DNA from: Afipia sp. P52-10
GTDB lineage: Bacteria; Pseudomonadota; Alphaproteobacteria; Rhizobiales; Xanthobacteraceae
DNA: 64,000 nt
Reading direction: 5' to 3'
Assembly (NCBI RefSeq): GCF_000516555.1
Contig: NZ_AZSJ01000007.1
Span: 1,041,836-1,105,835 of the forward strand
Shown: piece after piece, positions 39,888 to 43,347 of the stretch
How the letters are laid out: every line of letters starts with the position of its first letter
How positions within the stretch are numbered: the first letter of the stretch is position 1
Made by a program: the position numbers and the translations under genes
The notes under the pieces: generated by a model
Database searches by the model: none
What the model was told of the DNA's origin: nothing
Seen by the model: only the letters and a program-made list of their open reading frames with translations

Positions 39888-40188
39888 GGGCGATCCTCAC
39901 GCTTGGCTATTCTTGGAAACCTCTCGGTCATTTCTATACGTCGGCTCGATCCCTCAGCAAGCTGATTTGGTAAGCCTCATATGGCGAATTCGCAGGGCGA
40001 AATCCGCCGTGGCTGCGACCTTTTCGCCATTGCGGCAATGATCGAACAGACGGCCTGCGCTGCATCAACACGGCCGTGACACGCTTACACCGGCGGGCCA
40101 CGCGGCGTGCTAGCATTCCATCGACGGCGAGCGCGTGCGGCCTGCCGTGCCGCACCTATGGATACCTGATGGATTCGGGAGGCCGGTC
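39888..40188. other. Intergenic region (no gene seen)
   Basis: About 300 bases between the acyl-CoA dehydrogenase start and the 73-aa gene. It must contain the dehydrogenase promoter; I see no strong promoter match, hairpin or coding frame beyond a 32-codon frame at 39979 without support. Confidence 0.5.
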
Positions 40189-40410
40189 ATGACCAGGTCC
40201 GAGTTTGCGGCCGGCGCGGGCGTATGCCTGCTTGTCGCGTTGGCCGCTTGGGTGACAACTCCCTACGTGAACAGCCACATCCCTGAGCGCCTCTCGGCCA
40301 CCGCACCGACCGAGCCATGCTTTGACAAGGGTGGTTGGCAGAATTGGCCATGGCCCAATGTTCCATGGCTGTCCCCGCCCTGCCGGCCATCCGCGCCGAA
40401 GCAGAGTTAG
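40189..40410 (+). CDS. Small Trp/Pro-rich membrane-anchored or secreted protein
   Basis: This hypothetical protein has 73 residues. The ATG at 40189 has GGGAGG 6 nt upstream. Residues about 5-24 form a hydrophobic helix (signal anchor). The rest is short, with two cysteines and a tryptophan/proline-rich patch (GGWQNWPWPNVPW). Two cysteines 20 residues apart may form a disulfide in the periplasm. No family is recognised. Confidence 0.6.
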   Translation: MTRSEFAAGAGVCLLVALAAWVTTPYVNSHIPERLSATAPTEPCFDKGGWQNWPWPNVPWLSPPCRPSAPKQS

Positions 40411-40460: not shown

Positions 40461-40534
40461 TGGAGCGGGTGAAGGGAATCGAACCCTCGTATTCAGCTTG
40501 GAAGGCTGCTGCTCTACCATTGAGCTACACCCGC
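40461..40534 (-). tRNA. trnG: tRNA-Gly (anticodon TCC)
   Basis: A 74-nt cloverleaf on the minus strand runs from GCGGGTGTAGCTC to CACCCGCTCCA. The anticodon loop is CTTCCAA (TCC), the T-arm has GTTCGATTC, and CCA is encoded. The downstream flank (lower coordinates) has no sign of integration. Confidence 0.97.
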
Positions 40535-40836
40535 GTCGCGTTACGTATGCAACGGCTCCAGCGCGTTTGCAACGCCGCAATGCCGCGCATGATGATCCCG
40601 CATGTTCAGCAACCTGGGCGAAATCGTGGACATTTCGGCCCTAACACTGACCAACGCGGGCAGGTCCGGGCGGTCGTCTTGCGCTCGACTTTCAGTTCTC
40701 AATCTGTCCATATTTAAGAATCAGGTCATTGCAAATGGAATATTCGATATATTTTGCTCGCATCGATCGGTCTTTTCGCCATCAGCCTGACAAGCTCCTC
40801 GCAAGGACAAGCTCCGTTTCACAACTTCGCTCACGT
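40535..40836. other. Spacer with rising AT content (no gene)
   Basis: Some 300 bases between tRNA-Gly and the decayed paralogue. The right part (about 40700-40790) is AT-rich. No coding frame is convincing. It marks the edge of the island that ends at tRNA-Tyr. Confidence 0.5.
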
Positions 40837-41527
40837 CTATCTTCTCGTGAAATAAGGAACATTGACGGTGAAACGATCAGAGGCTCCTGATATTTGATCA
40901 GCTAATCCTTTAGCCCTCCACTCATCAATCCACCGAAGCTTTTGTTCAATTCCTCGCGTTACTGGTTCGCCAAACGGGCCGCCGATGTCGAATGGCCAGA
41001 AACCAACCGGAATTATCGTGAGCAACACGTCTTTCAGTCGATAACCTGCTCCGAACACTAAGGACATGTCTTCCACACGTACCACGCGGACGCTTTTAGG
41101 CTGCTCCAAATTATCGAACGTCACCAACGTTGGAATCAGATTTTGTTTGACGGAAACGGTGCCCTGCAGACTCCCAACCCTGCCAAAAGGCACTCGCTTC
41201 CCAGCAGCAGCAAACGCCTCCATAGCGAGATAGATTATTCCATCAGGATTCTCGCCATTTCTCCCAGAAGTCAAAGTCACAATTAGATTGCGACCGCGAC
41301 CGAGATCGAGAAAGATGGCATCGCCTTTCGCTGCAACCGCACCACCAAGTGGACCCAGGCGATTTTTCCCAAGTACGTAGCGATCACGCCCGAGGCTGAT
41401 TTCATCCCATCCGGCGTTTCGACTTCAATTTCGAGACGGTATTTGTGCTCAGGTCGAGTGAGATAGAGCCATCCGCCAACAGCAGCAGAATTACGACCAT
41501 CAGGCCGACAACGCGAGCGGATATCAT
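40837..41527 (-). pseudogene. Frameshifted paralogue of the 42108-42812 membrane-anchored protein
   Basis: Three frames in series give a protein alignable along its whole length with the intact neighbour. It starts MISARVVGLMVVILLLLA (like MISNRVIGG...), shifts near 41472-41476 to WLYLTRPEHKYRLEIEVETP, shifts again in the T-run 41363-41367 to NRLGPLGGAVAAKGDAIFLD, and continues to VFGAGYRLKDVLLTIIPVGF and GEPVTRGIEQKLR. Both shifts look like single-base losses. The C-terminal 147 codons remain open, but lack a start with a ribosome-binding site. The original product was a single-pass inner-membrane protein. Confidence 0.85.
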
Positions 41528-41877
41528 CGCAGCAGGCCCACAGCGCGGCGGATGGCCCGACAACAGTGCTCCCCCTTCGTAATGGAGCTTACTCCCGAAG
41601 AACGAATAGAAACGATTGCTGCATATAGGTCCCCACGCAAATAATAACGTTCTGCTCAAAACAAAGCATAAGGCCGACCGCCATCACAACGATCTGACAT
41701 TCTTATTCCAATCTCCGCGCACCCGTGACCCAATTGTGACCCACCCAGAAACCGGCGCATAACAAAACCCCAAAATTGCAACTCAAAACCGCATAGCGGT
41801 CTGCGTATAGCGTCAGTCGCAAGTGACGCCCGAACCGCCTCTATTCCGTATAAGATCGGCACTATACGCGACCATCC
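41528..41877. other. Unassigned spacer in the island
   Basis: About 350 bases upstream of the decayed paralogue. A 68-codon minus frame (41656-41862) has no recognisable domain and no ribosome-binding site. I see no repeat or RNA gene. Confidence 0.4.
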
Positions 41878-42101
41878 TTAGTGCCTTTCCCATTGGCGAG
41901 CGCGCATTCTTCGCAATTCATCGTTTGTTATTGGAGTGCCGAAGAAATCTCGTCTGAGCTCGTTAGCGTAGAAGAATTCATAATTAGAAAAGCATTACCG
42001 AGCGCAGCCTGCGTCCCAGGTACGTCTATCCCTTCGTTATAGCCCCGATTGTAGGCATCAAGAGCAAGTATGGCTCGAAAGAGATCGGATGATATCGGCA
42101 T
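41878..42101 (-). pseudogene. Frameshifted small gene (lipase-like N-terminal motif)
   Basis: Starting at ATG 42099-42101, 7 nt after the intact paralogue stops, the frame reads MPISSDLFRAILALDAYNRG and stops at 41928. After one shift near residue 40 the neighbouring frame continues YEFFYANELRRDFFGTPITN to a stop at 41878, giving about 75 residues in all. The FRAILALDAYNRGY start resembles the N-terminus of lipase-like proteins of this family, from memory only. A GAGG 9 nt before the ATG supports real translation. It could also be two small genes in different frames. Confidence 0.5.
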
Positions 42102-42107
42102 CTGAAG

Positions 42108-42812
42108 TCAACCTCTAATGAACTGTCCAAGTTCGGCGATATATGGATCATTCGGTCTATGGATTTGCATCACTTGAGAACGCTCACGAAGCCTAGCGAT
42201 AATCTCCGGAATCTTGTTTTCGATTCCACGCGTGACCGGCTCTCCCAGGACGCCTCCCCAATCAAATGGCCACAGACCAACAGAAACGACTGTCAGAGTA
42301 ACCTCTGACAGTCGGTAGCCTGCTCCAAAAACAGACTGAAGATCGTCAGGGCGCACGACTCTCGCGGTGGCGACGTCTTTCAAATCTACAAAGCTGACAA
42401 GTGTGGGAATATGATCACTTCCGACGGGGAGAGTTCTTCCAGCAAACTTATAGACATCCTGAAATGAAACTTTATGACCGGTCGCAGCTAGAACTTTCTC
42501 TGCAAGATATGCTATTGCATCGACATTCTCGCCTTTTTTACCCGCCGCCATAATCATAAAAAGGTTTCGCCCCTCACCCAGATTTACAAAAATAGCATCG
42601 CCTTTAGCGCCTATAGACCCGATGTGCGGTAACAAAGGCGGATCTTTGCTGAGATGAACCGAGACTACTCCAGATCCAGATTTAACTCCGAACGGCGTTT
42701 CTACGTTAATTGTCAGGCGGTACTTGTGATCTGGCCGCACAAGGTAGACCCACGCGCCGAACAGCAGAAGCGCAACGGCTACACCTCCTATGACGCGGTT
42801 GGAGATCATCAT
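42108..42812 (-). CDS. Membrane-anchored hypothetical protein (intact paralogue)
   Basis: This 234-residue protein has one N-terminal transmembrane helix (about residues 5-24) and, by the positive-inside rule, a periplasmic domain. Beta-strand-rich segments include KYRLTINVETPFGVKSGSG and GDAIFVNLGEGRNLFMIMAA; a conserved core reads VFGAGYRLSEVTLTVVSVGL and WGGVLGEPVTRGIE. It has no recognised family. A degenerate copy follows 580 nt further along on the same strand, so the locus arose by duplication. Codon use is less GC-biased than in flanking genes, suggesting recent transfer. Confidence 0.75.
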   Translation of the reverse strand: MMISNRVIGGVAVALLLFGAWVYLVRPDHKYRLTINVETPFGVKSGSGVVSVHLSKDPPLLPHIGSIGAKGDAIFVNLGEGRNLFMIMAAGKKGENVDAIAYLAEKVLAATGHKVSFQDVYKFAGRTLPVGSDHIPTLVSFVDLKDVATARVVRPDDLQSVFGAGYRLSEVTLTVVSVGLWPFDWGGVLGEPVTRGIENKIPEIIARLRERSQVMQIHRPNDPYIAELGQFIRG

Positions 42813-43261
42813 GGATTTACCAACGACCTCGCCGCGCCGAAAAACGTCGCAGAGAGTAGACGATTCAGATCGCTATAAGAATGGTTATGTGAAGCCGGTG
42901 AATTATACAGCAAGTTCAAATTAAACAGCCCGAACACAATTCGATGCGATGATAAAGCCGAATGAAGCATCAGACTAGCCACCTAATTCCCTTAGCTGAA
43001 TGTTACTACTCCCATAACCACCGAGGCTTGCGTGACTGTCCCTCGATCAGATTGATGTTCGCTGCGCTGGCGGATACGAATCATCTGCTTCAATTGTGCC
43101 GCCAGGTACAAAGATTGCACCCGCAACGCTGATGCTAACCGGCGGCAACGTGCGGTGTGCAGTCGCAGAACAGAACGCGAAACCACGATTGCTTACAGGA
43201 TTGATTACGGATTGCTTACAGGGCGGACCCGCTAGCTGAGAATTTCTCTGGAAAATCAAAT
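42813..43261. other. Non-coding end of the island next to tRNA-Tyr
   Basis: These 449 bases have no supported gene. The left half is AT-rich. Near tRNA-Tyr a 13-bp direct repeat GATTGCTTACAGG occurs at 43187-43199 and 43210-43222. No integrase or clear attachment site is found. Confidence 0.5.
43187..43222. repeat. 13-bp direct repeat near tRNA-Tyr
   Basis: GATTGCTTACAGG is repeated exactly with a 23-bp period. It lies 40 nt from the 3' end of tRNA-Tyr. It may be an integrase arm-binding site or a chance duplication. Confidence 0.5.
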
Positions 43262-43347
43262 TGGTGGGGGAGGCAGGACTCGAACCTGCGAAGCCATGAG
43301 GCGGCTGATTTACAGTCAGCTCCCTTTGCCACTCGGGACACTCCCCC
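43262..43347 (-). tRNA. trnY: tRNA-Tyr (anticodon GTA)
   Basis: An 86-nt tRNA on the minus strand, with a 7-bp acceptor stem GGGGGAG/CTCCCCC, anticodon GTA in the loop CTGTAAA, a long class II variable arm, a T-arm with GTTCGAGTC, and encoded CCA. The 3' end faces the decayed island. Confidence 0.96.

What the first reader, a model, noticed from the sequence alone, without database searches (positions are those of the whole stretch)
40535..43261. Decayed island of duplicated membrane-anchored proteins between two tRNA genes
Intact and broken paralogues (42108-42812 and 40837-41527) with the same orientation, AT-rich spacers and atypical codon use point to a foreign segment. The intact protein has a single anchor and a periplasmic domain, and a small gene with a lipase-like start follows it at 7 nt. 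Duplicated, decaying anchored proteins next to lipase fragments are the usual look of orphan immunity loci for secreted phospholipase toxins. The toxin link is inference; the paralogy and decay are read directly.
Basis: partly seen in the sequence, partly recalled or inferred. Interest (0 to 1): 0.6.

Follow-up and report, generated by a model that had tools for sequence, protein, structure and literature searches.

The report
Orphan immunity gene beside toxin stub
The segment holds a membrane-anchored protein left over from a toxin-antidote pair: related bacteria carry the same gene directly in front of a giant secreted fat-digesting toxin of the RTX type, while here only the toxin's first 57 residues survive, which points to a widespread, apparently undescribed bacterial weapon family and its leftover antidotes.

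Summary
Between tRNA-Gly and tRNA-Tyr lies a low-GC insert (50.5% against 62.1%) with an intact anchored protein, a stub just downstream, and a paralogue broken by two frameshifts. The stub is the N-terminus of an RTX lipase. A scan with that lipase domain alone found 114 genomic places; in 62 of the 80 kept, a gene of the window protein's family sits directly upstream, usually overlapping by 4 nt or within a few nt. Full partners have RTX repeats, a GHSLGG lipase motif and HlyC/HlyD neighbours, so export is type I, not type VI. The lipase domain's best structural match is a T6SS phospholipase toxin solved with its immunity protein. Of 36 truncated lipases with the partner upstream, 35 keep that partner intact; 18 loci carry tandem partner copies, many with lipase stubs, as here. 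The window genome has no full lipase copy. Best explanation: an orphan immunity gene from a decayed type I-secreted RTX lipase cassette. Inhibition and an antibacterial target are inferred, not shown. The partner family matches no curated family and no solved fold, and paper searches found no description of it.

The parts
42108..42812 (-). intact 234-aa anchored immunity-like protein (N-terminal helix 5-25, beta-rich domain predicted periplasmic, C-terminal helix 202-214)
   Evidence: AF2 mean pLDDT 91.9 on a 73-row alignment
41928..42101 (-). 57-aa stub: N-terminus of an RTX class-3-type lipase, starting a few nt after the stop codon of the immunity-like gene; the rest of the lipase is missing
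   Evidence: no further convincing lipase similarity in the island
40837..41527 (-). broken paralogue of the immunity-like protein, two frameshifts
43262..43347 (-). tRNA-Tyr (gta), edge of the insert
   Evidence: 24-157 bp from tRNA-Gly in 8 relatives
40461..40534 (-). tRNA-Gly (tcc), edge of the insert
40535..43261 (.). low-GC insert (50.5% GC) between the two tRNA genes

Best explanation
The island is the remnant of one or more toxin-immunity cassettes of the kind seen in relatives, in which an immunity gene directly precedes a gene for an RTX lipase, often with an hlyC gene before them. The toxin is a large calcium-binding protein exported by a type I system, with an N-terminal lipase domain of the Lipase_3/alpha-beta hydrolase type. 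The protein at 42108-42812 is the cognate immunity: an inner-membrane-anchored (in some relatives lipoprotein) domain facing the periplasm, which binds and blocks the lipase domain when siblings or competitors deliver it to the envelope. In this genome the lipase has been deleted down to 57 residues and a second immunity gene is frameshifted, while one immunity gene stays intact as an orphan. Shown: homology, gene order, RTX/lipase/T1SS signatures in relatives, asymmetric decay, foreign composition. Inferred: inhibition, periplasmic site of action, antibacterial target, selection for keeping the orphan.
For: Scan of 84,980 species genomes with the lipase domain alone: 114 loci, 80 kept; a family gene lies directly upstream in 62 of 80 loci and before 77 of 97 lipase N-termini, usually overlapping by 4 nt or within a few nt. 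Full partners: 40 lipase ORFs over 400 aa with at least two RTX motifs, 31 with the family upstream; 7 HlyC and 5 HlyD among 65 neighbour ORFs; Shinella order HlyC - family - RTX lipase - ABC permease - HlyD. Lipase model (pLDDT 91.6) best matches 9cys, the T6SS lipase/immunity complex of E. cloacae, E = 6e-6; Ser129 in GHSLGG is invariant and His241 nearly so. 35 of 36 truncated lipases keep an intact family gene; 18 loci carry two or more family copies. Window remnant: profile E = 6e-10, and no other lipase copy in the genome.
Against: No experiment shows inhibition. Most copies in the window's own taxonomic family stand alone, many in a conserved context, which would also fit a domesticated envelope function. 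18 of 80 loci have no detected partner upstream, including six short Bradyrhizobium lipases (L183 looks like a partner cut by the contig end), so the partner is not obligatory for every lipase of this type. No solved immunity fold matches the predicted structure.
Confidence: 0.72

Rival explanations
1. The protein is an anchor or secretion partner of the RTX protein, as FrpD was proposed to be for meningococcal FrpC: it holds the secreted protein at the cell envelope and does not neutralise a toxin.
For: FrpD is a lipoprotein encoded in the frpDC operon with the RTX protein FrpC and binds its N-terminal domain with Kd about 0.2 nM (PMC5233953). The Afipia MAG partner (P0001) contains the FrpC self-processing module, E = 9e-33 to 6sjw.
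Against: An anchor is useless without its cargo, yet intact copies persist next to truncated lipases in 35 of 36 cases, in tandem arrays and as solo genes. No sequence match to FrpD and no fold match among the 50 best was recovered.
Confidence: 0.12
2. The window protein is a domesticated envelope protein of unrelated function, and its position beside a lipase stub is a relic of descent only.
For: A well-supported clade of 50 rows that holds the window protein is 48 solo, many of them beside the same amidotransferase-like gene.
Against: The nearest relative of the window protein (Afipia MAG, 51% identity) is coupled to a full RTX lipase, and the window copy itself is followed by a lipase stub; the label solo needs about 17 changes on the tree, so coupling has been lost or regained repeatedly.
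Confidence: 0.08
3. The island is debris without function: the intact ORF is decaying like the rest and has merely not yet been hit.
For: One paralogue here and one on contig C3 are broken.
Against: Across 77 coupled pairs the lipase is truncated in 36 while the partner is intact in 35 of those, an asymmetry not expected from neutral decay. For the window itself this cannot be decided: no close homologue was found for a test of selection.
Confidence: 0.06
4. Type VI secretion phospholipase immunity locus (Tle/Tli).
For: The lipase domain resembles a T6SS lipase effector structurally.
Against: Full-length partners carry RTX repeats and lie beside HlyC/HlyD, and no T6SS family is among the 25 commonest neighbour families. 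Tli of E. cloacae is an all-alpha ankyrin-repeat protein (PMC11470151); the window protein is beta-rich.
Confidence: 0.02

Closest known systems
Tle/Tli phospholipase-immunity pair of Enterobacter cloacae (T6SS; 9CYS, PMC11470151; PMC10294624)
   Same: Alpha/beta-hydrolase lipase domain (best Foldseek match); immunity carried as an envelope-anchored protein; toxin and immunity form a pair
   Different: T6SS delivery, no RTX; Tli is an ankyrin-repeat alpha solenoid, whereas the protein here is beta-rich
FrpD/FrpC of Neisseria meningitidis (5EDF; PMC5233953), proposed but not tested as antibacterial effector/immunity in PMC6759196
   Same: Membrane-anchored small protein encoded in one operon with a type I-secreted RTX protein; one partner here has the FrpC self-processing module
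   Different: No sequence similarity of the partner family to FrpD and FrpD not among the best fold matches; no lipase domain reported for FrpC in the papers read
Smlt3024/Smlt3025 X-T4SS effector/immunity (PMC6759196; NCBIfam NF050128)
   Same: Periplasm-acting effector related to N-termini of RTX proteins, neutralised by its immunity protein
   Different: The RTX lipase domain does not match NF050128; the partner family shows no sequence link to 6PDK
RTX lipases exported by type I systems (e.g. 2z8x, 2qua)
   Same: RTX repeats plus a lipase domain
   Different: Sequence match is to the RTX part only; no immunity partner is known for those (general knowledge, not tested here)

Membership tests
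RTX lipase exported by a type I system (the partner, judged on full-length relatives) | GGxGxD nonapeptide repeats | tested here: met
   40 ORFs over 400 aa with two or more motifs; PF00353 E = 4e-21 in Shinella, 2e-9 in the Afipia MAG
RTX lipase exported by a type I system (the partner, judged on full-length relatives) | T1SS or RTX-activation genes nearby | tested here: met
   HlyC 7, HlyD 5, ABC transporter 2 of 65 neighbour ORFs
RTX lipase exported by a type I system (the partner, judged on full-length relatives) | class 3 lipase fold with GHSLGG nucleophile | tested here: met
   Lipase_3 just under its cut-off; fungal class 3 lipases and 9cys
RTX lipase exported by a type I system (the partner, judged on full-length relatives) | lipase activity | not testable with these tools
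   needs an assay
Immunity protein of a toxin-immunity pair | gene directly adjacent to the toxin gene in many genomes | tested here: met
   62 of 80 loci
Immunity protein of a toxin-immunity pair | located where the toxin acts (envelope-anchored) | tested here: inconclusive
   anchor helix in the model; lipobox in 14 of 106 relatives; topology is predicted and the toxin's site of action is not known
Immunity protein of a toxin-immunity pair | kept as orphan when the toxin is lost | tested here: met
   35 of 36 truncated toxins keep an intact partner; solo copies
Immunity protein of a toxin-immunity pair | binds and neutralises the toxin | not testable with these tools
   needs an assay
FrpD family | sequence or fold similarity to FrpD (5EDF) or Smlt3025 (6PDK) | tested here: inconclusive
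   no sequence hit at E up to 10; not in the best 50 of 538 weak Foldseek matches
T6SS Tle/Tli | T6SS genes or adaptor domains nearby | tested here: not met
   none among the 25 commonest neighbour families; RTX/T1SS instead
Smlt3024 X-T4SS effectors | match to NF050128 | tested here: not met
   the two RTX lipases scanned do not match; lipases L259/L270 match it only in the C-terminal part

The most novel reading that the evidence does not exclude
A widespread and apparently undescribed class of type I-secreted RTX phospholipase toxins used between bacteria (mainly Alphaproteobacteria, also Nitrosomonas, Nitrospirales and Saprospiraceae), each with an anchored immunity protein of a fold not yet solved, in which lineages gain and lose toxins and pile up arrays of orphan immunity genes with toxin stubs; the window shows the end stage.
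Probability: 0.55. Interest if true: 0.72.

Novelty: new variant of a known kind. Interest (0 to 1): 0.55.

Why it matters
Type I secretion is known for small bacteriocins and for toxins against host cells (general knowledge). A dedicated immunity partner for large RTX lipases would make it a general route for antibacterial lipases and would explain many RTX proteins of unknown purpose in soil and water bacteria. The orphan arrays would be a record of past toxin exposure that can be tested directly: do solo copies protect against relatives' lipases? The finding also gives a functional lead for a protein family that matches no curated family.

Tried and rejected
Family libraries: nothing significant in Pfam, NCBIfam, PADLOC or PHROGs for the window protein, nor for 59 family members in Pfam. 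Homology to FrpD/Smlt3025: no sequence hit, no fold hit among the best 50. Link to the lipoproteins that precede X-T4SS-type lipases: profile-profile probability 0.8%, rejected; those lipoproteins do not match 6PDK by sequence either. Viral structures: no match. Search of genome contigs with the window protein alone: none, too divergent. Att-like repeats at the tRNA edges: no repeat of 20 bp or more involving the tRNA ends was reported and no integrase was seen in the insert, so the mode of insertion is unknown. Further lipase pieces in the island or beside the C3 copy: none convincing. HlyC in the own genome: none found, but the control rang nowhere, so this is no proof of absence.

Full report
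Observation. The island has 50.5% GC against 62.1% for the window, the ten lowest 500-bp windows of the 64 kb fall in it, and GC3 of the intact ORF is 0.45 against 0.81-0.87 for flanking genes. The paralogue carries two frameshifts. Its identity to the intact copy is 47-63% in pieces, so these are old paralogues. A further broken copy lies on contig C3.

Site. In 8 of 11 relatives in which both tRNAs are on the contig, tRNA-Tyr and tRNA-Gly are 24-157 bp apart; in 3, including the other genome of the genus, 4.4-8.4 kb of other genes lies between them. The 2.7 kb is therefore most simply an insert, at a place where other content has also accumulated. No integrase and no repeat of the tRNA ends was found.

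Family. The protein matches no curated family. In the window's taxonomic family 106 of 392 genomes carry it. Members share an N-terminal anchor (a hydrophobic helix, or a lipobox in 14 of 106), then a consensus RYRLTxxVxTPxGxxxGSSV and a C-terminal TGEPxTxGIExxLPWL. AF2 gives a confident model (pLDDT 91.9) of a beta-rich domain behind an anchor helix; Foldseek finds no significant solved relative.

The stub. The 57-aa ORF aligns to the N-terminus of RTX lipases (MTISADLFKAILAMDSYNRG...) at E = 6e-9 to 4e-4 and E = 6e-10 by profile. Nothing else of the lipase was found in the genome.

The pair elsewhere. On a Shinella plasmid the order is HlyC acyltransferase - family protein - 1258-aa RTX lipase - ABC permease - HlyD. 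In an Afipia MAG the closest relative of the window protein (51%) overlaps or abuts an RTX lipase of at least 1228 residues (cut by the contig end) that also has the FrpC self-processing module. A scan of 84,980 species genomes with the lipase domain alone returned 114 loci; of 80 kept, 62 have the family gene directly upstream, most often with a 4-nt overlap or a gap of a few nt. That scan used no information from the upstream gene, and the family is found about once per genome, mostly not at all, so this is far beyond chance. HlyC (7) and HlyD (5) are the commonest families among 65 neighbouring ORFs.

Decay. 36 lipases with the partner upstream are truncated to 22-262 aa; 35 of these keep an intact partner. 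Eighteen loci have two or more partner copies or pieces, and many of these have lipase stubs of 22-180 aa between them (for example L164, L172, L182, L184, L186, L188, L191, L193). The window has this anatomy with the last full lipase gone. One further genome (G465) keeps a partner followed by only a 19-residue stub. On a tree of 174 members the label solo changes at least 17 times; the window sits in a supported set of 50 rows of which 48 are solo and one other is the Afipia pair (FastTree only). The count of lipase-coupled rows rests on my own marking.

Lipase. The domain model (pLDDT 91.6) matches the T6SS lipase of E. cloacae in its immunity complex (9cys, E = 6e-6) and class 3 lipases. 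Ser129 of GHSLGG is invariant and His241 nearly so. In some gammaproteobacteria-type genomes a related lipase carries a C-terminal part like that of the Smlt3024 X-T4SS effector family and is preceded by one or two lipoproteins, so the same type of lipase seems to be delivered by other routes as well; those lipoproteins are not detectably related to our family.

Interpretation. Best reading: orphan immunity for a lost type I-secreted RTX lipase. The main rival, an FrpD-like anchor, does not explain why the partner outlives the lipase. A domesticated function for the solo clade cannot be excluded, and for the window gene alone neutral survival cannot be excluded either. Literature: FrpC/FrpD has been proposed, without test, to be an antibacterial T1SS effector/immunity pair (PMC6759196); searches of the held library for T1SS RTX lipases with immunity returned no description of this family. 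Absence from that library is weak evidence of novelty.

Noticed in passing
G000:C3:2210927-2211611 (L039:8925-9618, minus): Third copy of the immunity-like gene in the same genome, broken by a frameshift and a TAA; no lipase remnant found beside it.
   Followed up: partly
window 40535-43261; L241, L242, L243: The spacer between tRNA-Tyr and tRNA-Gly holds different genes in different relatives (4.4-8.4 kb in three, tRNA-Tyr inverted in L241) and is under 160 bp in eight others: a variable site.
   Followed up: partly
L270:634-3321, L272:1-2682, L259:499-2564: Lipases of 440-480 aa with a Smlt3024-family C-terminus are preceded by one or two lipoproteins; these look like X-T4SS lipase effectors with (duplicated) immunity genes.
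   Followed up: partly
L151 (G273:C1:5246196): An RTX-lipase-like reading frame of about 11,400 codons preceded by a lipoprotein resembling the immunity-like family; similarly giant frames in G265, G354 and G531.
   Followed up: no
L143-L148, L202, L204, L205, L212-L214: Bradyrhizobium carry a short (about 640 aa) relative of the RTX lipase with at most one RTX motif and no immunity-like gene upstream, in a conserved place beside a serine-protease-like gene.
   Followed up: no
window 40135-40410: Small ORF (91 aa, plus strand) with a possible signal sequence next to tRNA-Gly; no family match.
   Followed up: no
G000:C3:2718808-2719578: The genome keeps one RTX-repeat protein (737-codon frame) that was not hit by the lipase searches.
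   Followed up: no
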